A stretch of DNA of 64,000 nucleotides. Source: Phoenix dactylifera (Eukaryota; Streptophyta; Magnoliopsida; Arecales; Arecaceae). Where the stretch lies: contig NC_052395.1 of NCBI RefSeq assembly GCF_009389715.1, positions 18,449,528-18,513,527 on the forward strand, written 5' to 3'. This document shows positions 7,149 through 49,343 of this stretch, piece after piece. The notes under the pieces are model-generated. The model searched no databases. It worked only from the letters and a program-made list of their open reading frames with translations, and had not been told where the DNA came from. A program made the translations under genes and the position numbers. Each line of letters begins with the position of its first letter. Position 1 is the first letter of the stretch.

Positions 7149-8047
7149 GCCAAGTCTTCGAATCAACACAACTCGGTTAAAACTTCAGTCTGACTTTTTA
7201 AATTTTTAAGCTACGATGCAGAGTCCGATATATGTTTCAGTCACTAACGCTATATCGGAAGTGAGATTCAAACTTACCAAAAGTCCAGAGATAAAAAAAT
7301 GCTCACAGTGGCTCTCTGTCTTATTGAAACCTGAAAAATGACGCAGGAGAGATATATACAAAATTCCATTTAAATATAGAAATTATTTGTTCCGCTCATT
7401 TCTTTTGAGGATAACAGCGATTAAGACATCGCATATCACTTTCTGACGTCGTTTGCAGGATCTTGTACTTGTATCAAGCTGGAGGATCTCGTTCTGGAAA
7501 AAAAAAAATTTATAGTAACACTGCCTTTCGGGGAATAGCTCAACATAGCATGCAGCGTCCAGCAGTGGCTCCACGTACACTCCGTAGTTCACTGTTGTAG
7601 ATGCCATCCAAGTACTTCCGTCCTCTCTTGCATCAGAAGCAGCTGTATTAACAGCAGGAATTAATGGCATCAGAAAGTTCCTGGAAGCCGGAATGATGAA
7701 TCATCAAGCCTTTTCTCACACAGGCTGATGAAGATCCAACACAACTCACCGTGCATTCATCAATTCCCTCCAATTAGTTTTATCCAAGAAATATTGATTG
7801 GTTTACCAGCAGAACGTTGCATGTATGGGTGATGTCGTCAAATGGCAACAAGCGGAAAACCTTTGTCGCCACATGAATTTTTGCTCCAGATGTCCGCCCT
7901 CAGCCGGTTCGCCCCAGGGTTCCTCGGCCGCACATCAGGGCCTCCGGCCGGAAGCTTCAGCGGCGGAGAGGATTAGGAGCCCGCCGGCAGCCAACCACCA
8001 TGGTGTCCAGCATTGCCGGCATTTTTTTTACCATCTTGGTCTCAAAG
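7149..8047. other. Host DNA between the hAT and gypsy elements; unassigned open frames
   Basis: This is the left part of the pre-insertion host locus; after removal of the nest it continues at 49344. Minus-strand 7383-7670 is open for 95 codons (YGVYVEPLLDAACYVELFPE in its middle), and the same frame stays open at least 30 bases further upstream. It has coding character but I do not recognise the family. A GC-rich stretch at 7890-8010 is partly open on both strands with no clear domain. These could be remnants of a host gene or chance. The last five bases (CAAAG) are the gypsy target duplication. Confidence 0.3.
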
Positions 8048-8771
8048 TGTTGCTGGAAATTGGACCCGAAAGTGACCGCGGATTGAGGAGAAGAAGCTCC
8101 GGCTGGCGTGGCGGCGGATGGATGTCTCCGGCGGACCTGCAAGAAGCCAGTGGCTGGGGTTTCCGGCGTCGGCCCTCCGATGCTTAAGTGAGAGAGGGGC
8201 TTTTAATGGGAAAAAGTAATGGAGAGGAATAATATGAGGATGTATTGGCTGGGGCCGGAGGAGAGATCCCCTACCCAAAACTCTCCCCCCTTTTTATTAG
8301 GGGGTGCAGCGGTTACCTGTAATCGGGCATGATTGCGTGAATCAATGAGCTACCATAACGACCCGAGATTTCGGGCAGCTGGCGATCCGTTGAGATCGGG
8401 TGCATTCAAATATTGACAGCCGTTGAGGCGGAGATCGCGGGATTTGATCCCGAATATGGAGGGCTTGATTTTCGGTGTGGTAGGGAGGTCTGCTTCTCCC
8501 TTTGACTGGGTCTGCCCTGGTCATGAGGTCGACCGAGCTCAACTCTACTGAGACTATGCCTGCAACGGCCATGCTGAGATCGAGGTCGTGGGCTCTGTGG
8601 TTGTCAATACCGAGACTGGGCACTTTGTGATCGGGCGTTCTGTGATCGGGCGCCCTGAGGTCGGGCGCTCTGAGGTCGGAACTGCCAAGAGCATGTTTGT
8701 CATCGTTGCGTTCACTATTGAGTGCCAGCAGTTTGACCATGCGCTTTGGGTGATCCATTTTTTCCCCAATA
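8048..8771 (-). repeat. Gypsy 3' LTR
   Basis: This is the 724-bp partner of 48624-49338. Because the element lies on the minus strand, this copy is the 3' LTR. It contains a short internal array of GATCGGGCG/GAGGTCGGGCGCTCT words (about 8628-8680). Its TATA counterpart (about 8284-8292) has been altered by an extra T, and its last bases read CAATA instead of CAACA. Confidence 0.93.
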
Positions 8772-8786
8772 CTACCCTCCGACTTT
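8772..8786 (-). promoter_or_regulatory. Candidate gypsy polypurine tract
   Basis: Immediately outside the 3' LTR, the minus strand is purine-rich (GTCGGAGGGTAGTA). This is where the plus-strand primer of reverse transcription must lie. It is weakly purine-pure, in keeping with the element's age. Confidence 0.5.
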
Positions 8787-9115
8787 CGAGTTCGAGCTGT
8801 TTATGAGCTCGGGCGAAGGAAGTAATTACCTTTATCATGCTGATGAGATCAGGCAGATTTGAATTGTTTTGTCGTTTCGAACGCTTTAGGGCATCTTCAA
8901 TGATAACATGAGCAGGTGACTTTTTGCTTTTTGAGGTGATTTCGAGCTGTGGATTCATGATGAGACTGTAGTATTCGACGGGATGCCGCTTCGATTCTGC
9001 CTTTAAGGCGACGATCCGATGTTGATACACTGGTTTGAATTCTGAGGTCAGCATGTGGCGCGATTTGGACGGGGGGCGCGGCTTGGTCTTGTCGATTTGA
9101 ACCATCGGAAGGGTC

Positions 9116-9123
9116 TATATAAA
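9116..9123 (+). promoter_or_regulatory. TATA box of the antisense gene in the gypsy element
   Basis: TATATAAA stands in a GGTC-TATATAAA-CCCTGG context about 280 bases before the ATG at 9397, on the strand opposite to the retrotransposon genes. It is a strong plant TATA match and suggests the antisense gene had its own promoter. Confidence 0.6.
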
Positions 9124-9396
9124 CCCTGGTCCGGCCCTAAAAGCCTTCATTTGGCCGCCGTTGTTCTTGTCTTCTTCTTCTTTCGCTTTCTTCTTCTCCC
9201 ATACTTTATTTAGCTTTCTAAGGCGGCGCTTCGAGGTGCTTTCCGGTGATCTCCTTAATCCCTCACTTCCGGCCGTCAACGCTTTCGGTGAAACCCACAG
9301 TAGGTCTCTTACCCATGTTTGCTCGGAGGGCTATCGCTTTTCTTTTTCTTCCTCTCCTTCCTTCTTCTTTATCTTTTCTATTTGGTGAGCACGGCA

Positions 9397-11775
9397 ATGT
9401 CGGGTGGTGCTTCATCTTCTGGTAGGGACCTTTCCCATAGGAAGGGGGTCGTACTGGAGATGGGCCATGGCCCAGATGGAATCAGGTCAAACTTGACCGA
9501 GGAGGAATTGGACCTGATCCGAGCTCGATTTTTCTCTCAATGCGGGTTTTGCCTTGAGCCTGCGAGGTCGGAAGATCGGATTACGAGACCTCCTCTGGGT
9601 CGGATTGGAGTGTACATAGAAACACTCTGGGCCGGCCTGCGATTCCCTCTGCACGAGTTTGTGAACGAGCACTTGGCGGCGTACCAGCTCGTCCCAGTGC
9701 AGCTCGCTCTGAACTCGCGGAGGACCATCATCGGCTTTTTATCACTTTGCCTCGCACACGAGATACCGACCTCGGTAAATGTCTTCCGTTGGTGTTTCAT
9801 GTTGAAATCTAACCCCACGGATGGAGAATGGTTTTACCTTGCTCTTCGGGGTGGTAGGCCGTTTTTCCGAAGTGCTCCTTCCTCCATTCGTAGGTGGAAG
9901 GAGAAATTTTTCTTCCTCTCCTCCAAGCGCACGTGGGAGTTCGACCCATCATGACCGCTGCCCAATCTCAAGGCCATCAACAGGCCCCCCAAGCTTTCGG
10001 TGAGTGAGCAGAAGATTCTCGACGCTCTTCGCAGCCTCGAGGGGGACATTCTTCTGAACAACCTCCTGAGCGAGGAGGCTCTGGTGAATGTTGGCCTGAG
10101 CTCGGTGCGCCCTATGGGTAAGGGTGGTCGTACTGCTCCTCTTCTATTCTGTCGCCTTAATATTTCTTTTCCTCTTTATTTCCTCAGTCGATCTGGAGAC
10201 TTTGCTTGGCTTTAGCTTTTCTCTTTTTTTCCAGAAGTCTCGAGGATGGTGTCCAGTAACAGCGCTCTTCTTGCCCGGTATAACAAGAGGGTGGCTGAGG
10301 CTGGTGGAGCTCGTCTAGTTCCGAGGAAGAAGCCCAAGACCGCTTTGACTTTTGCTCCCATGGAAGTCGAAGATCCTGAGGCTGAAATCCCTCAGCTTGT
10401 TCGAAAGAACAGCAGAAAGGAGGCAGGGGAGCCTGGACCAGAGGAGGCTCCCCCCACTGAGCGTGCCACTTCTGTTGAGCACGCAATTTCTGCCAAGGTC
10501 GCGGAGGAGCCATCTCGTGCTTGCCCAACCTCGGGCTCTTCTAGGACTTGCAAGGTCATCCGTCTGCGGCGCTCGGGACCCGAGGCGGGGAGCGGCCTAG
10601 GGGTCACGAGCTCTTCTCGAGCTTCTTTGCCGGGTCCTTCGGGGCCCAATGTTCCGAACTCCTCGAGGGTTGAAGATCGCCCCGAGAGAAAGTTTTATTG
10701 CCCTGAGTGGGCGATCTTCGAGGACGACTCCGTGCTTCATAATAGTGAAGTCGCTCACCAAGTCATTCGCTGCGCACTGTTTTCGGCTGATCGTGCCGCG
10801 ATCAACGCCGTCAGGGTCAGCGAGTTTGTTGATCAGGCCTTCTGCTCGGCCATCCGGATAAGTTTTTTTTTTTTTTTTTTTGCTACTGCTCATTTATTCT
10901 CATACCTTGCTGGGTTTTTAATCTTGGTTGACCTTTACTTGTTCTTGTTACAACACCTTCATGATATTGATGTGTTAATCTCTACGGTAGCTGACTATCA
11001 GGCTCGGGCTCGGAGGAGCCAGAGAGGGGAGGAGGTCGCGGTGAAGAAGCTCGCCGAGGGCGGGGCCAGGTGGAAAGAATCAACCGTGAAGGTGGAAGCT
11101 CTTGAATCCGAGCTCAAGCTTATGGCTGAGCGTTTTTAGGAGGAGGAGGCTTCGCACTCCCTTGCCAGGTCAACCCTTCATGCTGCCGAGGCCCGCTTGG
11201 CCGATGCCCAGTCTGAGCTCTTGGGCCTTAAATATGAAGCAGGAGTTCTCCGGCTGAGGATCGAGCAGCTCGAGGATCGAAAGAAGAGGGCAACGGAGCG
11301 AGCCCAGAACGCGGAGCAGATCTTCTGTGAATTGGCCGAGTTTCGAGACTTGATGGAGGAGGAGGCAGTTGACGGGCTTATTCGCGGCTTCGAGGATTGC
11401 CGGTCCCAAATTTGGAAGCTTTGCCCTAAGCTCGACCTCAGCGGTCTCCAATCTCGTCTAGGGGTTGCCGAGGATGACAATGCGCTCGGGAGCCCTAAGG
11501 ATGAGGGCATTCTTGACAACGTGCGCAAGAGTCCTATAGCCAAGACCGAGCGTGCTGTTGTCGAGGCCGAGGCCGGGACAGCTGAACAAGTTGCCCGTGA
11601 GGACCCCTCTGGAGAAGTGACTCTCGAGTCTGCTCTCGAGATCACACATGAAGCCACTCCCGAGGTCGCGCCTGAGGCCGCTTCTAAGGTTACCCATGAA
11701 GCTGCTCCCGAGATCGCACCTGAGACCGCTTCCGAGGTCGCCCCCGAAGTCGGCTCTGCTCCAAAGGCAGCTTGA
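9397..11775 (+). pseudogene. Antisense accessory gene of the gypsy element (Transposase_28-like, coiled coil)
   Basis: This gene runs opposite to gag-pol, between integrase and the 3' LTR, a position known for accessory antisense genes in Tat-lineage elements. From ATG 9397 the first exon encodes a domain like the 'putative gypsy-type transposon' family (PF04195): GLRFPLHEFVNEHLAAY and RTIIGFLSLCLAHEIPTSV around residues 70-125. A TGA at 9952-9954 interrupts it, but the same frame continues to a GTAAGG donor at 10118. The second exon (10235 to about 10859) is Ser/Pro-rich with a basic PRKKPK stretch. The donor near 10859 and the next acceptor look damaged. The last part is a long coiled coil, broken by TAG at 11137-11139 and ending in degenerate Glu/Val/Ala/Pro repeats (EITHEATPEVAPEAASKV type). 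Function unknown; now decayed. Confidence 0.8.
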
Positions 11776-14684: not shown

Positions 14685-14689
14685 ACCTT

Positions 14690-14775
14690 TGTTGCCAAAG
14701 TTGACAAGCCAAGAGGGGGGGGGGGGTGAATTGGTTTCTCTTAATTTTTACTATATTACTTATGTCAATTGATGA
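14690..14775 (-). repeat. SIRE 3' LTR, outer fragment
   Basis: These 86 bases match the start of the intact LTR at 43838 (GTTGACAAGCCAAGAGGGG, a G-run, then GTGAATTGG). The match stops at CAATTGATGA where the CACTA element begins and resumes at 25511 with TGAGTTAGTGG. A run of about 12 Gs at 14717-14728 is close to the similar run in the other LTR. Confidence 0.95.
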
Positions 14776-14900
14776 CACTACAACAAATGTTGGTTTTTCC
14801 GACTAACTTTTCCCGACGCTAGAAGAAAGCGTCGGTAAAGTTTGGCTCAGCGCCAACCTTTCCCGACGCTTTGGGTTAGCGTTGGAAAAGCGAAACAAAC

Positions 14901-15138
14901 AACGACGCTCTAAAGCGTCGTTATAAGTTTGAGAAACAACGACGCTTATAAGCGTCGTTAGAAAACTTAAAACCCCAACACCTCGCTCGATCGGCCCCCT
15001 CTTCTCATTTCCTATCTGCAACGACGCTCTAAAGCGTCGTTATAAGTTTAAGAAACAACGACGCTTATAAGCGTCGTTAGAAAACTTAAAACCCCAACAC
15101 CTCGCTCGATCGGCCCCCTCTCCTCATTTCCTATCTGC
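14901..15138. repeat. Tandem 119-bp duplication in the CACTA 5' subterminal region
   Basis: Two adjacent units, 14901-15019 and 15020-15138, are nearly identical. Each carries two palindromic blocks (AACGACGCTCTAAAGCGTCG and the perfect 22-base palindrome around GACGCTTATAAGCGTC) followed by AACACCTCGCTCGATCGG and a CT-rich tail. A third partial copy of the tail follows to about 15171. Confidence 0.85.
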
Positions 15139-15545
15139 GAGCCCTAGCCCCTCTCCTCATTTCCTATCTGCGAGCGCGCCGACTTCCCCGCTGCCGTCGG
15201 CCTCTCCTTCTGAGGTAAGCCCTAGCTCGATCGGCCCCCTCTCCTTCTGAGCCCTAATCTCACCTCCATCCCTAGCCCCGATTGGCGATCGAAGACTCCG
15301 TTACTCCGCCGCCGTCGACCTTGCCGTCGTCTGAGGTAAGCCTCCTACTCCTCCTTCTCTTCCTTCTCCTCCTCCTCCTCCTCCTCCTCCTCTTTGTTTT
15401 CTTCTTGTCTTTAACTCTCGCCCGGCCCCGTCTCCTCATCCTCTGCCGGTCGACGCCCTAGCTGCGCGCCGACATCTCACCTCCATCCCGAGCGAGCCGT
15501 AGCTACTCCGCCGCCGTCGACATCGCCGTCGTCTGAGGTAAGTGA
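15139..15545 (+). promoter_or_regulatory. Triplicated leader exon/donor units of the CACTA element
   Basis: Three GC-rich units end in the same splice-donor context: TTCTGAGGTAAG near 15208-15219, GTCTGAGGTAAG near 15329-15340 and again near 15531-15542. The last two are preceded by near-identical CGCCGCCGTCGAC words. A (CTC)n tract lies at 15363-15392. They look like duplicated non-coding first exons, probably part of the element's promoter/leader. Confidence 0.5.
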
Positions 15546-17783
15546 TCCTCATACTCTCCGTAAAGAAATTTTCGGGTAAATAATTCCAGTTTTCATGTTA
15601 CTAGCAGAAATTCATTGCTATTTGTATGGTATTTCTGATGATTCTGTCATAATAATGGAGTCTATTTCATTCCTTAGCATCAGGTGGTCTATTTTATCTA
15701 ATTATTTCATTGACAGTCTGATTTGCGTCATTATTGCTGTTTATATTTCTTGACAATTAATCTTGAAGATAGCATTTGCATAGTATTCCTTGCTTTTGTT
15801 TATTACTTTTATTTGCTTTATTTGAAAGCAAAATCCTTGCTACCAAATGCTCCAAAAGTTTTACAATAATAATAATAGTAATAATAAAGGGTTTCATTGT
15901 ACATGTTGCTCAGTCTTGTCATTTTTTCTTGGATTACAACATAAGCAATACCTCAAGGATTCTTAGATTTATTTCTAAGCTCAAACCCAGTTCATATTGT
16001 TCAGGCTTCTAGGTCTTCGGCCCAAGCTCGGTGCTGCGGTCTTTTATTGAGTCAAGGGGCCGCCATATGGAGAAGTCTTCTGGTCTTTAAATAGACTCCT
16101 CTGTTTTGGATTTTGAGAGAAAAAAATTGAAGTACAGCAGGAAGATATATAAACATAGAGGAGCCATCTAGTGTTTTTTGGCTGTTAGTGACCAGATTTG
16201 ATCTGGCTAGAATTTGATTACAAACTTATGTGACACCAAACAGGTCATGGTAATGACTTTAGACTTCATTTTGTAAGTTTGATCAAAATGACGTTTTGGA
16301 TTCTAACCAAAACCTAGCGTTTATAAAGGCGGGCTGAGCCGATAGGATGAACAGGAGCAGCAATATAGGTGGCAATAATCTTATGATTAAATATTTTAAA
16401 TTTTATATTTGAAGATAAATATACTTGTATTTTTGATGGTTGCACTCATCTAATTTCTTTTTTTAATTGAAAGCTAAGAAGAGTTAGGTAAGCTAGGTAA
16501 AGTGAGTGCATTTATTATACTGGTTGAACATCTAGTTTGTCAAAATGTGAACATTCCACTGGATTTTCCTTATAATTGTAGAGATTTGCATGATTATGAA
16601 AAATCCTAAATAGGTTACCTTAGGTTAGGTTGAGTCAGGATAAAAGTAATACCACTTTACTCTCATAAGTTTCTTGTTTTGTAATGCCTGATAGTCATGA
16701 GACAATTCAGTTTTCGAATACAAGTTAATGTTAAATAGTATTTCATAAATTACATATGAAACATTTAGCTATATTTTAACATAAGCATTGTGTGTCAAGT
16801 GAGAAGCACGTCTGATTTGCTTGATTTAATAGATGGAGACAGACTTGTATCTTTCGAATTTATAATACTTTAGTGTAAACAACTTTAACTCCCCTATCTC
16901 TAGCGTTTGATCATCATCATTGCATAACTAATATCTAATTACAATATCTTATTAATGGAGAGGTAGATTTTTCTTTTTTCCCCTGAATCTCTTCTTTCTC
17001 ATTATTACAATATCTATTTATCCATGCAATAATTTCAATAAGTTCTGTGAAATATTTGATGTCACCATCAATTAGCTATGTAGCAGCTCATTGCATAGGA
17101 TGTTGATAACTTCCACTCAATCATTCCTTTGATTCCCCTAAAAAGTAATTTGCTTATTTCAATGTTTTGTTTATCTCGAACCATCACATATAATTTGATA
17201 ATTAACACAATTTATTTTTTAAGAGAGGATAATTATCACAAATTATGCTTCTGCATACCTATATGCATGCTTGTTTCTCTTTAAGACACATATGATAAAA
17301 ATTTGTAAAATTATCATCAATAAGTTAAGCAGTTGAACCAGTGTGGAAGAAATTAATGTTCAGATCAGCTCAACTGATGTCATGGTTGTTCCTCTTTTAT
17401 CAGTGCATGTCAATGTCTAGACTAGTTCAAAAATAGTGATAAGTCAGTGCTTCAGCCCCAAACAAGAAAGCCTAGAACAATTTGATTCTATCTATGATTT
17501 AACCTCTGATACAGACATCGGTTTACTATAGAGACTATAGAGAGACGTAATCTTTTGAATAGTCGTACTGATCTCAATGTTAATTCTTCCCTCCTGGTGA
17601 ACACCTAATTATTCCGGATTTTCAGATATCGTAACTTTTTTGCTTATATTGTTGATTGAGTTCTTTATTATGTGTGACTGCATTAACAAAATATTACAAG
17701 GATAATAATCATAACAGGAGTATTAAAATTTAGAAAACACATATCCAAGTTATAGACAAATGCAGCTTAATCCTTGAACCAAC
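15546..17783. other. CACTA interior without recognised gene
   Basis: About 2.2 kb of AT-rich DNA. Open frames are short and no domain is recognised. It may be leader intron or captured intronic DNA, since it ends at the intron side of the PSI1-like exon (minus strand), whose donor lies at 17784/17783. Confidence 0.4.
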
Positions 17784-18014
17784 CTTTTGTCAGCAGCAGC
17801 AATGCAAAGAAGCTCATTGGTATCTGCCGAAATCAGTTGTCTTACTCCATCAGACTGCAAAATCTCTTCTTTTAAGAATTTGATGTTCTCGTCTGAAAGT
17901 GACCTCCATAAATTAGCACCTTTGGCAATTGTATTTGCAACTTCAAATGCCAGTATTGAAATTTTATTTCCTCGAGATGTAATTCCAGAGATAAATCCAC
18001 TGCCAGCATTCAAG
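17784..18014 (-). pseudogene. Captured PSI1-like (DUF3475) exon, part 1
   Basis: On the minus strand this piece is fully open and reads NKISILAFEVANTIAKGANL and then LISADTNELLCIAAADKR before a GTTGGT donor. These are hallmark segments of the DUF3475 region of plant PSK SIMULATOR 1-like proteins, which act in growth signalling. The preceding codons (ETLGSSMSNLN) lie across the inner CACTA element at 20845-20875, so the host exon was captured first and then split. The retained exon-intron border shows capture of genomic DNA rather than of a processed transcript. Start and end of the protein are missing. Confidence 0.8.
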
Positions 18015-18059
18015 CACTACAACAATAAAGGATTTTGGCGACTCTATATTGCCGACGCT

Positions 18060-18200
18060 ACAAAAAAGCGTCGGCAAATTTTTTTCTTGCAACGGTAACT
18101 GCCGACGCTTGTGGAGAGCGTTGGTAAAAAAACGTTCCGCCGACGCTTTTAAGCGTCGGCGTAGGAAAAAAATACGACGACGCTTATAAGCGTCGTCGGA
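18060..18200. repeat. 5' subterminal palindromes of the inner CACTA
   Basis: Imperfect and perfect inverted repeats follow one another: GACGCTACAAAAAAGCGTC, GACGCTTTTAAGCGTC and the perfect GACGACGCTTATAAGCGTCG block at about 18176-18197. Confidence 0.85.
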
Positions 18201-18300
18201 CTTCACTCCTCCCCTCCACAAAACCCCATCGACCCCCTCCCTCCATAGCCCACAGTCCGGTTCTTGAGCTCCAAGAGCCGACCTCCCAAAGATTTCACGG

Positions 18301-18682
18301 ATGGAGGTGGGCTGCCTTCTTCTCTTTCGAACCCTCTCCTCTCCTCTCATTCGCCCTCCTCTCTGTCGCCATTCCTGGCCAGTCCCGTCCTCGCCTCTCC
18401 TTAGAGCCTCCTCTTCCCCTCCGCCTATTCCCTCTCCTCCCTCGGCTTATCCTCAGGTACGCAGCCGTACCCTCCTCTCTTCTCCTCTCTCATCTCTCTT
18501 CTTCTATAACTTGGTTTCTTTGGTGCGAAGGGGGCTTACAGAGGCCCGAAACCCCGGCGGGATTTGGTAGGCGACTGGGTCTCCAACAACGATGGGTTCG
18601 TCCGGAGCTTGCCCATCTTCGTGGGCGGCCTCTCCTTGCTCGCTGTCCTCCTTAACCGCGCCTTCTCCGGCATCGCCCCCGA
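18301..18682 (+). pseudogene. Captured CCB4-like gene fragment
   Basis: Two exon-like pieces are visible. ATG 18301 opens a Ser/Pro/Leu-rich, transit-peptide-like exon ending at a CAG/GTACGC donor (18456). From about 18531 the next piece reads YRGPKPRRDLVGDWVSNND and then RSLPIFVGGLSLLAVLLNR. From memory this matches plant CCB4, a chloroplast protein needed to attach haem c' to cytochrome b6. The similarity stops after GIAP near 18682, where unrelated sequence takes over. The captured part covers only the N-terminus and first membrane segment, so it is not a functional gene; it shows gene capture by the inner CACTA element. Confidence 0.7.
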
Positions 18683-20492: not shown

Positions 20493-20830
20493 ACGAATTT
20501 TTTTTTTAAAAAAATTATATTCTAACGACGCTTTAAAGCGTCGTTAAAATCACGAAATTTTTTTTTAAAAAAATAATATTCTAACGACGCTTTAAAGCGT
20601 CGTTAAAATCACGAATTTTTTTTTAAAAAAAAATAATATTCTAACGACGCTTTAAATTTTAACGACGCTTTAAAGCGTCGCTAATTTCCGACGCTTTTGA
20701 AAGCGTCGGAAAATATTTTTTCCACTGTAGCATAGGCGACGCTTTACCGACGCTTAGGAAAGCGTCGGGATGGTTTTTACCGATGCTTAAAAGCGTCGCT
20801 AAAGGCCAAAAAAAGCGTCGCTAATGCCCA
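20493..20830. repeat. 3' subterminal palindrome array of the inner CACTA
   Basis: Three successive units of about 58 bases each combine an AAATTTTTTTTTAAAAAAA hairpin with ACGACGCTTTAAAGCGTCGT, followed by several GACGCTTnnAAGCGTC palindromes up to the terminal repeat. It is the densest palindrome cluster in the window. Confidence 0.88.
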
Positions 20831-20844
20831 ATTTTCTTATAGTG

Positions 20845-20875
20845 AAGTTTGACATGCTACTTCCAAGGGTTTCTT
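20845..20875 (-). pseudogene. Captured PSI1-like exon, part 2
   Basis: Read on the minus strand, these bases encode ETLGSSMSN in frame with the LNAGSGF start of the piece at 17784-18014 once the inner CACTA and its AAG duplication are removed. PSI1-like proteins have a DTLGSSM-type motif at this place. The sequence further upstream on the minus strand (an open frame to 21069) does not look like PSI1. Confidence 0.65.
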
Positions 20876-33695: not shown

Positions 33696-33750
33696 ATTGA
33701 ACCCAATTGATTCATGATTTGGACTAAACCAAATAGGAGCCCTAGATGCC

Positions 33751-33760
33751 TTTATAAGGC
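33751..33760 (+). promoter_or_regulatory. TATA box of the Angela-like LTR
   Basis: CTTTATAAGG lies 50 bases upstream of the CT-rich segment with a CACGTG motif. The 3' LTR has the same signal at 41214-41223. Transcription would be expected to begin about 30 bases downstream. Confidence 0.6.
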
Positions 33761-34352: not shown

Positions 34353-34364
34353 TGGTATCAGAGC
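34353..34364 (+). promoter_or_regulatory. Primer-binding site, initiator tRNA-Met type (Angela-like)
   Basis: TGGTATCAGAGC begins one base after the 5' LTR. It is complementary to the 3' end of plant initiator tRNA-Met, the usual copia primer. Confidence 0.95.
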
Positions 34365-35978: not shown

Positions 35979-38900
35979 TTGGCTCAGCAAATTTCAAAAA
36001 TAGTTTTGAATTATGAGAAATTCGGGTATATGCTAGACCATGGAATCCCCATGTTACCAATCCGTCCGATCACTGATCAGCGTAAGACGCTTGTTAAGTG
36101 GACGAACAATGACAATAAAGTTAGGTGCTGCACAATGGCATCCATGTCTAATGAATTATAATGCCAGCATGAGAACATGAAGACTGCCAGGAACATATTA
36201 AATCACCTGCAAGAGTTGTATGGCGATCAGAGTCGCGCAGCATGTTTTGAAGTGTCCAAGAGGCTCTTCAAGGCAAAAGATGCGCGATGGACAGTCTGTC
36301 CATGATCATGGTTTGACCATGATAAAGGACTTAAAGAAGCTTGAGAAGCTCGGCATGACCATGCACAAGGAACTGCAAACGGATTTAATCCCGTAATATC
36401 TTCTAGCTTCATATGAATAGTTTATAGTAAACTACTATATGAACAAGGTTGTATGCACTAAAATAGAATTGTTAAATAAATTGGTAACTAACTTAGGGAC
36501 CTTGAAGACGTTCAAGGGGCATCGTTTTCGCTGTCAAGTTGGTTTCTACTTTCAAGAGAGAGTCTATTTGGAAGAAGAAGAAGCCTGCGAAGAAGCAGAA
36601 GACTAAGAAAACACCAAGTAAGGAAGTTCCAAGAAAAAGGCCAATTGCAAGGAAAAGTGTTTCCATTGCATCATGGACGGCCATTGGAAGAGGAACTGTC
36701 CTACATACATGGGAAGCATAAAGAACATGAAGGGTGACAGACCTTCAGAAGGTTTGTCAGATATGCTCAGGATACTTAGGGACTGTTACCTATTGCTAGC
36801 AGAAATTTGATTTCTGTATTTTATTTAGCACAGAAAGATTTTTATTTGAAAATTAAATTGATTCAACATGGTTTTATGATTGACAGTCTCTATCACATAC
36901 ATATGGATGTATCTGTGAATATATCTGAGCAAACAGTGAATACCATAGGATCTAATAGATCCAAAAATGAGATAAATCTAAAGTATTTATGGCACCTCAG
37001 GCTTGGCCATATAGGAGAAGACAAAATAAACAAATTGGAGAAACATGAGCTTTGGGCTCATTGACTTTCGAGTCATATTTGATTTGTGAATTCTGCCTTC
37101 AAGGAAAGATGGCCAAGTTATTCTTTGTAGGACACAGGGAGGTCCACTGAAATACTTATCCTAGTACACACTGATGTGTGTGGCCCATTCGATGTGCAGG
37201 CTAGGGGTTATAATTTTTTACTTCATTTACCGATGATTACTCACGGTATGGATATGTGTATGAGACACAAATATAAAACTTTTGAAAGGTTCAAAAAGCT
37301 TAGATATGAAGTAGAAAAATAAGCACAAAACTCATTAAGGTTCTTCGATCAGATCGAGAAAGTGAATACCTTAATGGAGAGTTCCGTGATTATCTCAAGA
37401 AGAATGGTATAGTTTCATAATAGACTCCTCCTGGAACACCTCAACTCAATGGAGTGTCAGAGAGGAGGAATCGGACCCTATTAATATGGTCCAGTCCATG
37501 ATGAGCTTCACTGATTTACCCTTGTTTCCTTAGATAGATGCCCTATTTTTAGCTATTTACTTGTTGAATAGAGTTTCCTCTAAAGTCCATTCCTACCGCA
37601 CCATATGAGATATGACATGGTAAGAAACCAAGATTTGGGGATGTCCGGCCCACGTCAAGAGACTACAGGCAGACAAACTAGAGGCTAGGACCATAAGTGC
37701 TCGTTTTATAGGATATCCTAAAGAGTCATTAGGATACAATTTTTTCATCTCAGAGGATCACAATGTGTTTGTGAGCCGTCACGCCATCTTCTTGGAAAAA
37801 CCAGTTTATCCTTGATAGAGGCAGTGGGAGGAAAATTGAGCTTGAAGAGAAAGTCTCTGAAAAGCAACGAGTCATGGATCCTATCGAACCCATTCATACA
37901 GAGCCAGTACACGATGTCCCTCGACCACCTCGTAGATCAAGTAGGGTCTCCCATCCTCCCGATAGATACTTAGGTATACTAGAAGAGGATACCGAGGAAA
38001 TGTTCCTAGTGGGAGATAGGGATCACACGCAGGATTCCAAAACCTACGACGAGGCGATATCTGATATCGATTCCGAGAAATAATTGGAGTTAGACTCCAT
38101 GCATTCCAACCAAGTTTGGACCTTAGTAGATCCACCAGAAGGTATTGTACCTATTGGATGCAAATGGATCTACAAAAGGAAGATAGGTTCGGATGGAGAG
38201 GTAGAGACCTATAAGGCAAAGCTTGTGACGAAAGGGTATAGTCAGCGCGAGGGCATTGACTATCAGGAGACCTTTTCACCTGTAGCCATGCTGAAATCCA
38301 TCCGAACATTGCTTGCCATTGCAGCATTTTATGATTATGAAATCTGGCAGATGGATGTGAAAACAGCTTTCCTGAATGGATATCTTGATGAAGACATCTA
38401 TATGGAACAGCCTTTGGGTTTCACTTTCAGTGATGGAGATCACAAGGTCTGCAAGCTGCAAAAGTCCATCTATAGACTAAAGCAAGCATCTCGGAGTTGG
38501 AACACTCGTTTCGATGATGCAATCAAAACGTTTGATTTCATCAAAAACGAAGAGGAACCATGTGTTTACAAAAGGGTTAGTGGGAGTGCTGTTGTATTTC
38601 TCGTACTTTACGTGGACGACATCCTCCTGATAGGGAATGATATTCCCATGCTAACCTCGGTCAAGGTCAGGTTGTCAAAAAGGTTCTCCATGAAAGACCT
38701 TGGGGAAGCATCCTATATTTTGGGAATAAAGGTCTATAGAGATAGATCTAAAAGGATGCTTGGCCTATCACAGAAGATGTACATAGAGGAAGTGCTGAAA
38801 AGGTTCAGCATGGAAAACTCTAAAAGGGGTCTCTTACCCCTAAGACATGGAATTAATCTCTCCAAGAAGATGTGCCCCAACACATCTGAAGAGATTCAAC

Positions 38901-39564
38901 GCATGAGCAAGATCCCCTATGCATCAGCAATAGGGAGCCTCATGTATGCCATGCTATGTACATGACTTGATATAGTACATGCTGTGAGTGTCATGAGCAT
39001 ATGTCAATCAGATCCAGGCAAAAAGCACTGGATAGCTGTGAAGAACAGTCTTAAGTACTTGAGAAGAACTAAAGACATGTTCTTGGTCTTTGGGAGAAGA
39101 TCAGAGTTGAAGGTAGAAGGATGCACACATATTGATGATAGAAAGTCTACATCAAGATATGTGCAATGGTGGTTCAGTAAGTTGGAAGAGTTCCAAACAA
39201 CCAATCATTATAGATTCTACCTTAGAAGCTGAATGTTAAGCCGTATCTTAGGGTGCAGTGGAAACCTTCTAGTTAAAAGTTCATTGCAAAGTTAGGTGTA
39301 ATGTCATTAGATGTCATAACACTTTACTGCGATAACATTGGCACCATAGCACTAGCTATGGAGCCAAGGTCTCATCAGAAGTCCAAGCACATAGAGCGGC
39401 GCTTCCACCTCATACGCGACTATATTGAGAAGAAATATGTAGAGGTGCAAAGAGTAGACTCCGCGGATAACATGGCAGACCCGTTCACTAAGCAGCTAAG
39501 TCAGCAAAAGACTGAAGCCCACCTTGAGAAGATGGGGCTTAGATATATGACTGATTGGCTTTAG
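35979..39564 (+). pseudogene. Angela-like copia gag-pol, degraded
   Basis: Gag remnants (35979-36410) are followed by a Lys-rich stretch and a zinc knuckle CFHCIMDGHWKRNC at about 36659-36700 (C-x2-C-x4-H-x4-C). Protease is not recognisable between about 36700 and 36790. The preintegrase LWHLRLGHIGEDKI is at 36987, and the integrase core 37080-37560 is full of stops and shifts. RT at 38084-38965 is open for 293 codons, with IWQMDVKTAFLNGYL and YVDDILLIG, then stops (TGA at 38963-38965). RNase H 38984-39564 shows KHIERRFHLIRDYIEK and DPFTKQ but is frameshifted. Overall it is much more decayed than 0.8% LTR divergence would produce. Confidence 0.9.
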
Positions 39565-39565
39565 T

Positions 39566-39578
39566 GCAAGTGGGAGAT
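39566..39578 (+). promoter_or_regulatory. Polypurine tract of the Angela-like element
   Basis: GCAAGTGGGAGAT directly precedes the 3' LTR, the form seen in many plant copia elements. Confidence 0.8.
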
Positions 39579-41814
39579 TGTTAGATGTATGCCCTAGAAG
39601 CCAATCTGGCTGACACATTGTTAATTCTAGGGACATAATTTTGTACTTGACTATTTATTATTGAATAAATAAAAGGCATCTTTTCATTCATATTAATTAT
39701 GTGTCTATGAATCATCCAAGAAATTAATAAGATGATGATGCATATTCTCAAGAGTTGAGAATTTGAGCCATGTATCATTGGTGATTAATTTCTAAATGCT
39801 CCTGATCAATGGATCATCACGAGGACGGTGATCGATCCGATCAGTGCACAGATCACTTTTCTTCTGGATGGACGAGACTTGAGTCCACAGTGTAGGGACA
39901 CTGAAGTGATAGTGCAGGTGCTTGTTAGAGAACAAGGGTACTGAGCGTGACCAAGACAAGAAGTTACTTGGACGTCTATCTACTCGTCAGTGACTTGCTT
40001 GATGTTGCAGTAGTATGACTGGTCCTTTGACCTGCGGTGCTTCGGCTACTCACAGTGAGGTTATTGTAGTTTGACTACACGTATACATGGTCTCTAGTCA
40101 TATGGGTCCTTGTAGTGTAGATTGGCTGCAGTAAGTTCACTGTAGGAGTAGGGTATGCACTTACATGGAATCTATCGACCTTGATAGAAGAGGAGTGATC
40201 CTATGTGATTTGTTAGACTGAGTTCTAAGACCTTGGCCAGGGCAGTAATAGAAAGTGGAGAAAGAGTTTTCCACTATCGAACTCGAGTCAAATAAATCTT
40301 GACATATGACAGACGAAGGGGTTTGACGAGTTATCCATGACCACCGTCCTGTAGGGATCCACGATAGTAGGACTGTATCACACGATAACTGCACCTAGAG
40401 GTTCATCATTCTATTCTGCTGGGTAGTCACTACATACTGCTAGGTGTCACTGGTGGATGGTGGAACTCATAGGGATTATCTCGATGATCGATAAGCCCTA
40501 ATGAGTAGAGTTGGAATCGTTCCGACCCATTGAAAGGAGTTTTCAATGATATTGTGATAGAGATCACAATATATCTCACTACCAGTCAGAGTAGAACCTA
40601 TGGGGTCACACACGCTAGAGGCATTGACCGATCCGATGGTTGAATCGTGATTAGGAATCACAAGTAATCAATTTGATTGATAATAAGCTGAAGAAGGAAC
40701 AAAGAGAATTAATTAATTGGACTTAAAACAAGAGTCCTACTTGGAGTAGGATTCCTAGAGTCCTAATTGGATTAGGACTAGAAATCCTACTTGGACTGAG
40801 ATTCCTACTTGGACTGGGATTCCTACTTGGACTGGGAATCCTATTTGGAGTAGGACTAGGATTCCTACTTGGAGTAGGATTCCTACAATCCTAATTAGAT
40901 TAGGAGTTTTGAATTAAATTTGGATTCCTACTTGGAGTAGGATTCCTAGAGTCCTAATCGGATTAGGACTTCGAATTCAAATTAGAGTCCTAATTGGATT
41001 AGGACTAGAATTAAACAAGTCCTAATTGGATTAGAATTTCTTAAGTCCTAATTAATTATTAATCTAATGAATCAACATGACTCCTACTTGGATTAGGATT
41101 GAAGAGTTCAATTGAGTCATGGTTCATTCAAGTTCTAATTGGATTAGGACTAGCATAGATTGAACCCAATTGATTCATGATTTGGACTAAACCAAATAGG
41201 AGCCCTAGATGCCTTTATAAGGCTTTGAAAGGAGGTGCCCTAATGATAAGTGAAGCCCTCCTCCTCTCCATCACGTGGCCACCCTCCTCTCCTCTCTTTT
41301 CAGCCACCAACAACAAAGGGAAGAAAAGGATCTTGGTGGCCTCCTTCTTCCTCCACCGTTTGGTTCCAACGCAAGGAAGAAAAAGAAGGCTGCAGGGCTT
41401 CGTTCCTCTTCTTCTCTTCATCCTTCTTCTTCCTCCTCCCAAGCACAATTAAGGATTGATTGAAAGGGAGGATATCAGCCATCAAAGCTATCTCTGCAAG
41501 GGAGCTAGCACCCCGGGGAGATAGAAAGCTTGGATCGGTTTTCTGCTTCGTGTGGATACCCGTAGAGGCCGGGCACTTGAACGGCTTCAAGCGAACCTTC
41601 ATCCTAAACCACGAACTTCAGTTTGCGGTGATCATCTACCTGCACAAGGTGAAGATCTGATCTTCTAATGTTTTAAAAAGTTTTTAATCCTTATCTATCT
41701 ACGAACGGTCTTGAAACAACGTTCATACGATGAACGGTTGATCCCGCGCATGCCTCTTCCGCTGCATCTGAATTTTTTTTTAAAATTCAGCGGCATGATC
41801 GGGGTATTCTAACA
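39579..41814 (+). repeat. Angela-like copia 3' LTR
   Basis: Same length as the 5' LTR. Differences seen by eye are scattered, mostly single transitions, plus a small cluster at about 40416-40428. Confidence 0.96.
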
Positions 41815-43774
41815 CAAATGTGACTTTAAACCCTTTATCACAAAATTGACTTATGCTAAGTAGGTTATGTTTCAAACCATTAACTAATAAGACATTTTCT
41901 ATGAAGGTAGATGGAGTAATGAAAATTTTACCCTTTCCAATGATATATCCTTTTCCATTGTCTCCATAGGTTACTACTCCACCCTTCTTAGATTCTAAGG
42001 TGACAAATTGGTCTACGTCACCGGTCATGTGTCTTGAACAGCCGCTATCTAGATACCATCGTTTATCCACTTTATTTGCTGCAAGACACCCCTGCAATCA
42101 AGATCAAGAATGAGCTTTAGGTACCCAAACTATGTTGGGTCCTTTAGGGTTAGTACTTGATGTTCCTTTTGGAACCCAAACTTTCTTGAATTTAAATTTA
42201 TGATTATTACTCAATTTGTTTTGACTGGACTTTCTATAGTTACATTCATATGCTTTATGTCCTAATTTATTGCAGCAATGACAAGTAATATTTTTATTTT
42301 TAGCTTTTACAAAAATGTTCTTTAAGTATTTTTGTTTCCTATTTGTTTTATATCCTAATTCAGCCTTATCATATACAGCTTTTTGACTATCAAGAATCAT
42401 ATTTAATTTGGTTGAACTAAGTGTAAACTTATCTACTAAGGATTTATATTTTTCAGCATCTTCTTTTAACTTGACATTTTCAGCAATTAGATTCTTGGTT
42501 TCATTTGTGAGTTTCCTACTTAATGTTTCATAGTTATGAGATAGTTTTAATTTATCTTTGATAAGAGATTGATTTTCTTCTTTTAGAAATTTATTTTTAT
42601 TGATTAGTTTTTTATGTTCTTCCATGAGTTCTGAAAATGCATCATGTAATTCATCAACAGTAAAATCACATTCAAGTTCAGAATCTATCTCATCGTCATT
42701 GGCCATATAGCATATTTGGGCCGTCTCTTGATGATCTTCCTCTTCCGAACTTGACTCCTCACTTTCACTCCATTCAGCCATGAAGTTCTTCTTTTTAAGT
42801 TTTCTTGCCATCCACTTTAATTCCGGACAATCTATCTTATAATGCCCGAGTTTGTTACACTCATAACAAATAGGTGTTTCTTTTTTCTTTTCTTTGTCCT
42901 TACCCTTTTCTTTGCTTGAGCTACGTTTGAAGAAGGGTTTCTTTTTATGAAATCTATTCTTACCTCTCATAAATTTTCTGAATTTTCTTCCAAGCATAGC
43001 CATTCCTTCTTCATCAAATTCATCATCATCATTAGAATCTTCCGACTCAGTTTGTTGTTTTGGAGTGGGAGACTTTAGGGCAATGGTCTTTCTTCTCTTG
43101 ACCTCATCTTCTGAATTTTGCCTCATGGTCAACTCATGGGTCATGAGTGATCCTAGAAGTTTCTCTAATTGCAGTGTATTGAGGTCCTTTGCTTCCTGAA
43201 TTGCAGTTACCTTGGCCTTCCAAACTCTTGGTAGAGATCTGAGAATTTTTCGCACCAATTCAGAATTAGTATAAGACTTTCCTAAACTCTTTAGCTCATT
43301 TATAATTTCAGTAAAATGAGTAAACATATCAGTTATGGACTCAGTGGATTCCATTTTAAACAATTCATACTTATGTACTAATATGTTTATTTTTGACTCC
43401 TTAACTTGATTAGTTCCTTCATGTGTGACCTCAAGTTTGTCCCAAATTTTTTTTATAGAGATGCATGTAGATATTCTATTGAATTCACTTACATCTAATG
43501 AACAGTAAAGTACATTAATCGCTTTAGCATTTAATTGTGCTAATCTTCTATCACTTTCATTCTAATTCATTTCTGGTTTGGGTATGATAGTGCCCTCTAT
43601 ACTAATTGTGGGTGTGTGAGGTCCTCTAGTTATAATATACCACAATTCATAGTCTAGAGCTTGAATGAATATCCTCATCCTAGCTTTCCAGTATGTGTAA
43701 TTTGTGCCATTAAATAGAGGAGGTCTATTTGTGGATTGCCCCTCACTCATAGAACATCCCACTTGGGTTGTCAT
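41815..43774 (-). pseudogene. SIRE gag and protease
   Basis: From ATG 43774 the gag begins with FNGTNYTYWKARMRIFIQAL, typical of copia gag, and stops at about 43562 (one in-frame stop) before continuing openly from about 43380 to 42104. The capsid-like part (ITDMFTHFTEIINELKSLGK) is followed by two zinc knuckles, CYECNKLGHYKIDC and CHCCNKLGHKAYEC, with a long Lys/Glu coiled coil between them. After stops near 42104 comes protease with the DSG active site in WYLDSGCSRHMTGD (about 42050). The frame leads into the CAAAT junction of the inner copia and resumes at 32115. The two-knuckle gag supports SIRE assignment. Confidence 0.9.
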
Positions 43775-43823
43775 GATCTTTAACTCTTGATTGTGAGATC
43801 AATAAATACTATTGGAGCACCTT

Positions 43824-43835
43824 GCTCTGATACCA
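43824..43835 (-). promoter_or_regulatory. Primer-binding site of the SIRE element
   Basis: On the minus strand TGGTATCAGAGC follows the 5' LTR after two bases; complementary to initiator tRNA-Met. Confidence 0.95.
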
Positions 43836-43837
43836 CT

Positions 43838-45329
43838 TGTTGCCCAAGTTGACAAGCCAAGAGGGGAGGGGGGGGTGAATTGGTTTCTCTTAATTTTTAC
43901 TATATTACTTATATCAATTGATGAGTTAGTGGAATTTAACAAAGCACAATACAAACACACAAGAAGTATAGTGGTTCGGTGCTCTCCTAAGCACCTACGT
44001 CCACTCCCCAAGCGACCTCTTGGAAATTCACTATAATTCCGCGGATTACAGTTGGATTGTTTTCCGGGCTCACAATCCAAAAATCTTTACACTTTGGTTT
44101 TCCGGGATCACCAAAAACCTATGTTGGTTTTACGGGCTCACCAACGAACCTATGTTGGTTTTTCGGGCTCACCAACGAACCTTTACAATTGGTTTTACGG
44201 GTTCACCAATAAACCTACACCGTTGGTTTTGCGGGCTTACCAACAAACCTTTACAAGGTGATTAATAAAAGAAGTAAGAAGATTTAAGCTCCTAGATGAG
44301 CAAATATAACAATATAATCTACAAAGAAGAGTTTAGAGAATAGTTATCGCTTGATGAGACTTCTCTCTTCTTTGTCAAGGATGCTTCACTCTTTAAGGAT
44401 GGATGGAGCTCTTAATGACTCTTGGAATCTGCTCAACCACTTTCTTTTTACTCTTGAATGAAGCACTTGGATGAAGAAGATTAGGGCACTTGTCTTTCTT
44501 GTGTACTCTTTGATATTTTGCAAAAGAATGTTTTCTCTGATGAATAGTGCCACTTTAAATAGTTTTCTTCATCCATTGGACAAGCCCCAATGGTTAGAAT
44601 TCAAAAATTAGCCGTTACTCACTGTTGGAAAGACAAAAAGTACTTCTGCAGAACTAGCCGTTATGCTTCTGCCCGTGCTTGGGTCGACTCAACTTTTACT
44701 GGGGTCGACTCAACTTTCACTTGGGTTGACTCAACCTTTCCTTGGGTCGACCCTCTCAGAACCACAGAACCTTGTATTTCAGCCTTCCTTCACTTGGGTC
44801 GACTCAACATCTTTTTGGGTCGACTCAAGGTTCAGTTGGGTCGACTCAACTTCCACTTGGGTCGACCCTCTCAGGATTTCCAGAGAACCTAATTTTGAAT
44901 GTCATTGCCTTTGGGTCGACCCTCTCAGTGTTTGGGTCGACTCAAGTTTGGGTCGACTCAACTTCCTCTTGGGTCGACCCTCTCAGTGTTTTCAGAGAAC
45001 TGTTTTCTTGAGGCTTGAGAGGCTTGAGGTTTGGGTCGACTCATCCTTTTCTTGGGTCGACCCAACTACTGTTCATCCGTGCCATTTTTGCAGAAGTATG
45101 CCAGATGCTTTCTTGATGTGCCGGGGTCGACCCAATCAACCTTGGGGTCGACTCAATCCACACTTTGCTGCAACTCAAGGTTAGATTCATCCATATAAAC
45201 AATGAAATGCATCTTTATCTTATTATACGAATATACTGAGAGTAACAGACTTATAAATGAAGTATCGAATTAACTTGTAACATACTCTTGATTATTGTAT
45301 TAATCATCAAAATACCACTATCATCCTCA
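43838..45329 (-). repeat. SIRE 5' LTR
   Basis: The 1,492-bp intact LTR. Read on the minus strand it starts TGAGGATGATAG. A TATA-like CTATTTAAAG (minus strand) lies at 44553-44562. Confidence 0.95.
44681..45155. repeat. GTCGAC motif array in the SIRE 5' LTR
   Basis: Sixteen TGGGTCGACTCAA / GGGTCGACCC words, one altered to GTTGAC. On the transcribed (minus) strand the array lies upstream of the TATA-like signal at 44562, i.e. in U3, the enhancer position. Confidence 0.88.
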
Positions 45330-45334
45330 ACCTT

Positions 45335-47115: not shown

Positions 47116-48404
47116 CCCTCGGTGAATGAGTGCTTCGATCTCATCTCAGAGTTGGAAGCACTCCTCGGTGTCATGGTCGTGGTCTCGGTGGAAGCGACAG
47201 TACTTCCTAAAGCGTTGCCGAGCTTCAGAGACTCGCATCAGTGGTGGCAGTTGGAGATAGCCTTGGCCTTCTATCTTCATGAGAATCTCGGATCGAGTAG
47301 CAATGAGGGGAGTGTAGTTTTCGTACCTCCTTGGGGGTGTTCTCTGCCGAGGTGTTGATCTCGGTCGAGGGTGCGGTCTCGGGCGAGGAGGACTCCTCAG
47401 TCGAGGCATGTTTTTCTTTCGGCGAGGTGACCGGCTCCTCGGGCGACCGTGTTCTTCGTGATGTCTCTTTTGCCCTTTTGCGGATTTTTCGGCGGTATCT
47501 CATCGAGAAGCCATGGCCTCCTCGGCCTTTGCATACTTCCGAGCTCGGGCTAGCATCTCCATAAAGTCGGTGGAGAAATTCTTCTCGAGGAAGAAGAGGA
47601 ACCTGCAGGACCGAGCTCCTGTTTTCAGCGCAGACATGGCGATCAACTGATCAAGCTCACGGACCTCCCAGGTTGCGGCAGTGAAACGGTCGATGTAGTC
47701 CTTGAGGGACTCTCCTTCTTTTTGCTTGATGTTGAGAAGAGAATTCGATGTTCGTCGCTGGCGTCGGCTGGCGGCAAAATTGGCAGCAAACTGCCTACCT
47801 AATTGCTCGAAGGATGACACGGTTCTCGGCTTTAGACCAGAGAACCAAAGTCGATCCATTCCTCGAAGAGTTGCAAGAAAAGCCTTGCAGAGCATGGCCT
47901 CCGAGGATCTCTGCAGCACCATGAGGGCTCGGTAACTTTTCAAGTGGTCCAGGGGTCGATAGTCCCATTGTAGGACTCTATTTGAGGCATTTTGAACCTG
48001 GGTAGGACCGGTTCGTCCTCAATCTGGCGAGAGAAAGGTGACTTGGTGGTAAACTCAAGGTCGCCCTCTCACCTTTCCCTCTGGTCCTGGAGAGCTTCGA
48101 TCTGCCGCTTGAGTTTCTCGACCTTCTTGTCGAGTTCTCCGCCTTGGGAGATCACCACGATGGTCTGCTTCGGTATCGACTGACCTAGGGTCGATTCGGC
48201 TTTGGAAGGCTGCAGTCTTTTGTCCTGGTTCCTCCCTAGTGGCTCTCTTCGGGGGGAGGCCCGGGTTGAACTCGGGTGACAGTGCTGTCCTCCATTGTTG
48301 ACCCTCGAGGAGTCATGGAGGTCTCGACCTTGGGACACAGGTCCATCTGGAAGGAGCGTCGATGGAACATTATCCTGCGGAGGCGGCGCGGGAGGGGCCT
48401 CCAC
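47116..48404 (-). pseudogene. Gypsy gag
   Basis: The N-terminal part (48404-48069) is Pro/Ser-rich followed by a short coiled coil (ELDKKVEKLKRQIEALQDQR). The retrotransposon-gag capsid domain is at 47943-47500 (KAFLATLRGMDRLWFSGLKP, LLNIKQKEGESLKDYIDRF). Downstream an Arg/Pro-rich region and a knuckle-like CRFHRDHDHDTEECFQL (about 47200-47150) complete gag. Shifts near 47990-48060 and 47410-47500 break the frame. Confidence 0.88.
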
Positions 48405-48606
48405 ATGTTGCAGGCCTTGGACTGCTGCAGCCAGGGCCTAGACTTGCTGCACCAGCGTGTTGAATTGCTCTGGCTGGATCTGAGAAAGTGGATCCGCCGG
48501 AGGCCTTAGTGGCAAGTTCTGGACAGAGTGGCCAGGACTTAGTGCGCGATGTCGAGAGGTATTAGAAGCTCCTCTGCTCCTTAATCTCATGGTCACGACT
48601 CGGTCC

Positions 48607-48623
48607 CTTCCTCTAGCGCCAAC
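48607..48623 (-). promoter_or_regulatory. Candidate gypsy primer-binding site
   Basis: The minus strand just after the 5' LTR reads GTTGGCGCTAGAGGAAG. TGGCGC-type primer sites are usual in plant gypsy elements; the tRNA species cannot be named from this alone. Confidence 0.6.
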
Positions 48624-49338
48624 TGTTGCTGGAAATTGGACTCGGAGGTGACCGCGGATCGAGGAGGAGGAGCTCCAGCTGGCATTACAGCGGACGGCTG
48701 TCTTCGGCGGACCTACAAGAAGCCAGTGGCTGGGAATTTCAGCGCCGGCCCTCCGATGCTTAAGTCAGAGAGGGGCTTTTGATGGAAAAAAGTAATGGAG
48801 AGGAATGATATGAGGATGTATTGCCTGGGGCTGAAGGAGAGATCCCCTGCCCAGAACTCTCCCCCTTTTTATAGGGGGTGCAGCGGTTACCTGTGATCGG
48901 ATGTGATTGCGTGAATCAATGAGTTACCATAACGACCCAAGATTTCGGGCTAGCTGGCGATCAATTGAGATCGGCTGCATTCAAATATTGACAACCGTTG
49001 AGGTGGATATGGAGGGCTTGATTTTCAGTGTGGTGGGGAGGTCTGCTTCTCCCTTTGACTGGATCTGCCCTACTCATGAGGTCAGCCGAGCTCAACTCTG
49101 CCGAGACTGTACCTGCAACGGCCATGCCGAGATCGAGGTTGTGGGCTCTGTGGTTGCGATGCCGAGACTGGGCGATCTGTGATCGGGCGCCCTGAGGTCA
49201 GGCACTCTAAGGTTGGGCGCTTTGAGGTCAGGCGCTCTAAGGTCGGAACTGCCAAGTGCATGTTTGCCGTCGTTGCGTTCACCATTGAGTGCCGGCGGTT
49301 TAACCACGCGCTTTGGGTGATCCATTTTTTCCCCAACA
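48624..49338 (-). repeat. Gypsy 5' LTR
   Basis: 715 bp, partner of 8048-8771. It holds a minus-strand TATA signal (48865-48873) and the GAGGTCAGGCGCTCT-type word array at about 49175-49245. Confidence 0.93.
48865..48873 (-). promoter_or_regulatory. TATA box of the gypsy 5' LTR
   Basis: TATAAAAAG on the minus strand inside CCC-TATAAAAAG-GGGGAG. In the 3' LTR the same place reads TAATAAAAAG. Confidence 0.7.
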
Positions 49339-49343
49339 CAAAG

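What the first reader, a model, noticed from the sequence alone, without database searches (positions are those of the whole stretch)
8043..49343. Four-level transposon nest resolved to the base by five target duplications
Gypsy (CAAAG) contains SIRE copia (ACCTT), which contains both a CACTA (TGA) that contains another CACTA (AAG), and an Angela-like copia (CAAAT). Each duplication is perfect, and each removal rejoins an interrupted LTR, reading frame or exon. This makes the locus a clean stratigraphic record.
Basis: seen in the sequence. Interest (0 to 1): 0.8.

Follow-up and report, generated by a model that had tools for sequence, protein, structure and literature searches.

The report
Nested palm transposons carrying gene fragments
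A stretch of what is almost certainly the date palm genome holds five mobile elements inserted one inside another, and the two innermost carry copied pieces of two host genes; nests like this are common in plants, but this one can be read base by base.

Summary
All five target duplications are exact at the stated places. Four of the five insertions were also tested against relatives without the insert. In 7 of 7 fetched SIRE copies (picked from 40 listed places as LTR pairs) the Angela-like and CACTA sites are uninterrupted, with one copy of each duplication. One related gypsy upstream has exactly the predicted 237 nt across the SIRE site. The host gene behind the interrupted exon has a single AAG where the inner CACTA sits. 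LTR divergence follows the nesting order: gypsy 0.122, SIRE 0.022, Angela-like 0.008. The gypsy's own insertion rests on its LTRs and duplication alone.

The interrupted exon is a captured fragment of a PSK SIMULATOR 1 gene (close kin on C18). The inner CACTA carries exons 1-2 of CCB4 (C1), and a 501-nt part of it is 99-100% identical in 7 other places. The public gene model LOC120110671 looks like a copy of this element (inference). Nesting to 8 layers and CACTA gene capture are both published for wheat (PMC4290129): a well resolved member of a known kind.

The parts
8043..49343 (-). Tat/Retand-type gypsy with CAAAG duplications; element 8048-49338, 10,646 nt of its own after subtracting insert plus one duplication
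   Evidence: domains
8048..8771 (-). gypsy LTR, 3' in element orientation
48624..49338 (-). gypsy LTR, 5' in element orientation; likely primer-binding site beside it
9304..11772 (+). extra ORF region on the opposite strand of the gypsy (four ORF pieces in one frame, Transposase_28 in 9304-9951)
14685..45334 (-). SIRE-type copia with ACCTT duplications; element 14690-45329, between RT and RNase H of the gypsy
14690..26936 (-). SIRE LTR, 3' in element orientation, interrupted by the outer CACTA at 14776-25510
43838..45329 (-). SIRE LTR, 5' in element orientation, uninterrupted; internal control for the CACTA site
14773..25513 (+). outer CACTA with TGA duplications; element 14776-25510
18012..20847 (+). 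inner CACTA with AAG duplications; element 18015-20844
17680..18014 (-). captured PSK SIMULATOR 1 fragment, downstream part (exon residues 87-163 at 18013-17783, then intron)
20845..20873 (-). captured PSK SIMULATOR 1 fragment, upstream 29 nt, on the other side of the inner CACTA
18259..18681 (+). captured CCB4 fragment, exons 1-2 with intron (residues 1-52 at 18301-18456, 52-102 at 18528-18680)
32111..41819 (+). Angela-like copia with CAAAT duplications; element 32116-41814, LTRs 32116-34351 and 39579-41814

Best explanation
Five successive insertions on contig C4 of an inferred date palm genome: a Tat/Retand gypsy, then a SIRE-type copia into its RT-RNase H region, then, in unresolved order, an Angela-like copia into the SIRE pol and a gene-carrying CACTA into a SIRE LTR, and after that CACTA a second gene-carrying CACTA into the captured exon of the first. 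Shown: the junctions, continuity of the hosts at four of the five sites, genes matching the captured fragments elsewhere, nesting order. Inferred: the LTR elements arrived by reverse transcription and integrase (5-nt duplications), the CACTAs by cut-and-paste with transposase supplied in trans (3-nt duplications, no complete transposase found in either), and the gene fragments were captured as genomic DNA, introns included, before these copies landed here.
For: Exact duplications; uninterrupted SIRE copies, 7 of 7 fetched; gypsy relative with 237 nt, and the four gypsy pieces tested (RT, RNase H, second RNase H with H2C2, integrase C-terminal part) in one phase; gene on C18 spans the inner site; LTR divergence in nesting order, also outside CG/CHG sites 0.070, 0.0185, 0.0045; family-wide CACTA ends; CGACGC/GCGTCG, 48 of 54 in the window lie in the two CACTAs; matching genes at C18 and C1.
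Against: The two ends of the outer CACTA agree only over the first 7 bases. No empty site for the gypsy. Only one relative was tested across the SIRE site. The SIRE copies were picked as likely complete. The gag-side ORFs of the gypsy (46069-47145, 47503-48018) lie in another frame than RT (coordinates). LTR dating assumes no gene conversion. No long reads were seen.
Confidence: 0.96

Rival explanations
1. Assembly chimera: the junctions join unrelated repeat reads, and the duplications arise by chance.
For: Repeat-rich region in an assembly of 2391 contigs.
Against: Five perfect duplications at element ends; base-exact continuity in 7 of 7 fetched SIRE copies, in one gypsy relative and in a host gene.
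Confidence: 0.02
2. The interrupted PSK SIMULATOR exon is a remnant of a resident gene, not captured: the CACTA landed beside or in it.
For: The fragment is 98% identical to the gene and keeps intron sequence. The right end of a CACTA around the C30 copy was not among the 40 scored.
Against: The whole outer CACTA, fragment included, lies between two TGA copies inside an LTR whose partner lacks it; the gene is on C18; the C30 copy shares the downstream breakpoint and 3 differences from C18 and lies 5.6 kb from a left end of the same CACTA family in the same orientation.
Confidence: 0.03
3. Outer and 'inner' CACTA are one rearranged element rather than two insertions.
For: Similar subterminal motifs in both.
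Against: AAG duplication and continuity of the host gene with a 3-nt overlap; each has its own set of copies ending at the same base; a 501-nt internal stretch of the inner one is 99-100% identical in 7 other places.
Confidence: 0.01

Closest known systems
Nested transposon clusters of grass genomes (wheat chromosome 3B, PMC4290129)
   Same: Insertions inside insertions, LTR and CACTA elements, reconstructable layers
   Different: Wheat 3B: 30,199 nested insertions with up to 8 layers (passages); this nest has 4 layers and lies in a palm
Gene-carrying CACTA elements: soybean Tgm-Express1 (PMC1947982), wheat CACTA-captured genes (PMC4290129), Chenopodium CACTAs (PMC8978399)
   Same: Host gene fragments inside CACTA ends; in Tgm-Express1 they are retained as exons and introns (abstract)
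   Different: Here one gene-carrying CACTA has cut the captured exon of another; matching genes and breakpoints are read to the base. I did not search whether such a case is in print
Tat/Retand gypsy and SIRE copia lineages (REXdb, PMC6317226)
   Same: Domain order (Retand) and extra ORFs as described in passages
   Different: No departure noticed in the features tested

Membership tests
Ty3/gypsy, Tat/Retand | Second RNase H between RNase H and integrase | tested here: met
   RT_RNaseH (14018-14449), RVT_3 then Integrase_H2C2 (13286-14014); criterion from PMC6317226 passages
Ty3/gypsy, Tat/Retand | Transposase_28 (reported for 23% of Retand elements) | tested here: met
   9304-9951 + strand, opposite to pol
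Ty1/copia, SIRE | Copia order gag, protease region, integrase, RT | tested here: met
Ty1/copia, SIRE | Extra ORF downstream of pol | tested here: met
   27735-28550 with Transposase_32 (47.3 bits, cut-off 45); that this domain marks SIRE is not shown
Ty1/copia, SIRE | Position in a reference phylogeny | not tested
   no reference set at hand
Ty1/copia, Angela | Copia RT, LTRs and 5-nt duplication | tested here: met
   RVT_2; LTRs. Not specific to this copia lineage
Ty1/copia, Angela | Position in a reference phylogeny | not tested
CACTA (outer and inner) | CACTA...TAGTG ends and 3-nt duplication | tested here: met
CACTA (outer and inner) | Terminal inverted repeats beyond CACTA | tested here: inconclusive
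   first 7 bases agree in the outer (under 15 of 30), first 5 in the inner (20 of 30 in all)
CACTA (outer and inner) | Subterminal repeats | tested here: met
CACTA (outer and inner) | Own complete transposase gene (autonomy) | tested here: not met
   outer: two weak Transposase_24 pieces below the cut-off; inner: none up to E 0.1
Gene-carrying (Pack-type) CACTA | Host gene fragment inside the ends, gene present elsewhere in the genome | tested here: met

The most novel reading that the evidence does not exclude
The inner CACTA family is a recently active vehicle that spreads the first two exons of CCB4, start codon included, and at least one copy yields a spliced chimeric transcript and protein (LOC120110671) that acts on the donor gene, by small RNA or by competing for plastid import.
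Probability: 0.08. Interest if true: 0.6.

Novelty: new member of a known kind. Interest (0 to 1): 0.35.

Why it matters
It gives a base-exact order for two LTR retrotransposon arrivals and two gene-carrying CACTAs on top of an older gypsy in a palm, with genes matching both captures identified, so breakpoints and later changes can be read directly. It also suggests that a public gene model, LOC120110671, is a transposon copy.

Tried and rejected
A fifth, outer level was looked for: the left flank of the gypsy found only itself (1 of 1 candidate; the tool warns that this does not prove rarity); the right flank was not searched. A terminal-repeat filter of 15 of 30 missed the outer CACTA; family-wide end matches settled it. 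Solved-structure search placed the gypsy RT piece (8 sequences) but not the RNase H piece (0). Twenty 10-kb stretches were fetched (four beside the window, one round a listed SIRE match, fifteen scattered); the gypsy relative was found in two of the four neighbours. Whole-genome searches did not complete: P0121, window 45330-45830 (133, 135, 136, 139), 20344-20844 (126, 130), 20845-21400 (81, 83, 85), 41820-42420 (16, 24), 17700-18014 (71). So the extent of the C30 copy, a second test of the SIRE site in the gypsy and the inner right end are open. In one search the file for L009 held all seven loci; each was redone alone.
Full report
Source. The window is G000:C4:18449528-18513527 of a 773-Mb assembly. 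Contig C1 has 40,814,151 bases and C4 33,281,721. Proteins named Phoenix dactylifera lie on contigs of just these lengths: P0099 and P0242 on the first, P0241 on the second. That it is date palm is an inference, a strong one.

Observation. Gypsy 8048-49338 (CAAAG), SIRE-type 14690-45329 (ACCTT), outer CACTA 14776-25510 (TGA), inner CACTA 18015-20844 (AAG), Angela-like 32116-41814 (CAAAT); all five duplications are perfect. Gypsy and SIRE run on the minus strand, the Angela-like element on the plus strand (domains; sequence beside the LTRs; that these are primer-binding sites is recalled).

Test of each host, without rebuilding any retroelement. (a) Outer CACTA in SIRE: 14689-14775 and 25511-26937 match 43837-45330 of the partner LTR with a 3-base overlap; 60+60 nt of flanks equal that LTR but for a few substitutions; in 14 of 14 LTRs of the 7 fetched copies the two sides overlap by the same 3 bases. 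(b) Angela-like in SIRE: in 7 of 7 copies the matches ending at 32115 and starting at 41815 overlap by 5 bases. The 7 were picked out of 40 listed places as LTR hits 8-9 kb apart. Pol_BBD ends upstream of the site and the GAG-pre-integrase domain starts downstream; 114 of the 120 listed homologues hold both domains, though the list does not give their order. (c) SIRE in gypsy: RT ends upstream, RNase H follows downstream, and the four pieces tested from RT to the integrase C-terminal part lie in one phase; the gag-side ORFs lie in another. In a relative at C4:18436038-18440837, some 9-13 kb before the window, the distance between the RT and RNase H pieces is 237 nt, which is also the window's value with one ACCTT (my arithmetic on the coordinates). 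This is one relative; the piece beside the site has 39 further listed matches, 79-91% identical (40 of 1743 candidates scored), but the other side did not complete. (d) Inner CACTA: 20845-20873 and 17680-18014 abut on the C18 gene with the 3-base AAG overlap. (e) Gypsy: the left flank found only itself, so LTRs and duplication alone support this boundary.

Order. LTR divergence (K2P) is 0.122 +- 0.015, 0.022 +- 0.004 and 0.008 +- 0.002 for gypsy, SIRE (larger LTR part) and Angela-like; outside CG and CHG contexts 0.070, 0.0185, 0.0045 (JC). At 1.3e-8 per site and year (a grass rate, recalled) this is 4.7, 0.8 and 0.3 million years; palms are thought to be slower (recalled), so true ages may be larger. 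The order agrees with the nest. Nesting does not order the outer CACTA against the Angela-like element.

The CACTAs. CGACGC or GCGTCG occurs 54 times in the window, 27 in the outer element's own sequence and 21 in the inner, nearly all near the ends. The right end of the outer element stops at its last or last-but-one base in 40 of 59 listed matches (40 of 623 candidates scored), the left end starts at base 1 or 2 in 39 of 57 (40 of 322), the inner left end at base 1 in 37 of 49 (40 of 546); each count includes the window itself. The inner right end did not complete. No complete transposase was found in either.

First captured gene. Frame scans of the outer element found DUF3475 at the inner insertion site. 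The segment is 96% identical to residues 87-163 of oil palm PSK SIMULATOR 1 (P0121) and 86% to a date palm paralogue (P0125). The genome holds the gene at C18:4855360-4855694 (98%), a further copy at C30 (99%) and a paralogue at C128 (86%). On C18 the exon is followed by the next exons, so it is the donor or its closest kin. The DUF668 half was not found in the element at E 0.001. The window and C30 share the downstream breakpoint and three differences from C18; C30 holds more of the upstream part and a 157-nt insert. A left end of the same CACTA family lies at C30:977123 in the same orientation. So one capture with at least two descendants is likely; a right end on C30 was not seen.

Second captured gene. 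In the inner element 18259-18681 matches C1:36021923-36022345 over 423 nt with 7 mismatches and no gaps. It encodes residues 1-102 of date palm CCB4 with the intron kept. The C1 match begins at base 245 of the left-end query, while 21 of the 49 listed matches stop at 244, and it ends at 18681. Some copies with the fragment lack about 66 nt across that left breakpoint (matches 1-217 then 284-501). Of 23 matches to 18515-19015, 19 contain the CCB4 part (C1 and the window among them) and 8 (the window among them) span all 501 bases at 99-100%. Near identity points to recent mobility. P0241 (LOC120110671, contig of C4's length) matches the inner element in three blocks at 96-100%, residues 1-152 and 154-174 of 174, so I infer that the model is built on a copy of this element. 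C4 holds three such places, the window's among them; the protein differs from the window by a few residues. No expression was tested.

Orientation. The PSK SIMULATOR fragment reads on the minus strand and CCB4 on the plus strand, so no same-strand fusion of the two is expected here.

What is known. Wheat 3B: 30,199 nested insertions, up to 8 layers, 145 CACTA-captured gene copies (PMC4290129, passages). Tgm-Express1 of soybean carries five gene fragments that are spliced (PMC1947982, abstract and outline). Chenopodium CACTAs with captured fragments (PMC8978399, passages). Retand criteria from PMC6317226 (passages). A search for date palm with CACTA gave 9 papers, of which I saw 8 titles and abstract starts; none of these speaks of captured genes.

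Verdict. Ordinary in kind, unusually well documented. The stratigraphy claim holds. The added interest is a gene-carrying CACTA that has cut the captured exon of another, with a matching gene found for each.

Noticed in passing
window 53075-58978; L017 6755-9997, L019 1-1161: Region with an ORF weakly matching a cyclic-nucleotide-binding domain (58479-58988) recurs 16-18 kb downstream in collinear pieces at 73-83% identity, suggesting a tandem gene duplicate.
   Followed up: partly
window 2747-3646: 300-aa ORF with a BED zinc finger, possibly from a hAT-like transposase.
   Followed up: no
L018 6511-10000 and L016 1-1310: A second gypsy of the same type 9-13 kb before the window, 46-71% identical in protein pieces.
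   Followed up: partly
window 18661-19015; C12:7400333-7400685: Sequence after the CCB4 fragment is 96% identical to a place on C12 that lacks most of the CCB4 part; perhaps a second donor within the inner CACTA.
   Followed up: no
window 17609-17682: 74-nt stretch beside the PSK SIMULATOR breakpoint recurs at 96-100% in 26 of 39 listed matches, several of them a few kb from ends of the outer CACTA family.
   Followed up: no
L037 467-623: 157-nt insert in the C30 copy of the captured fragment, absent from the window and from C18.
   Followed up: no
L013 8973-9903: Stretch 93% identical to window 37759-38675 (Angela-like RT region) directly beside a SIRE LTR.
   Followed up: no
L011 and L013: Two of the seven SIRE copies lack the part matching window 42094-42688, in gag.
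   Followed up: no
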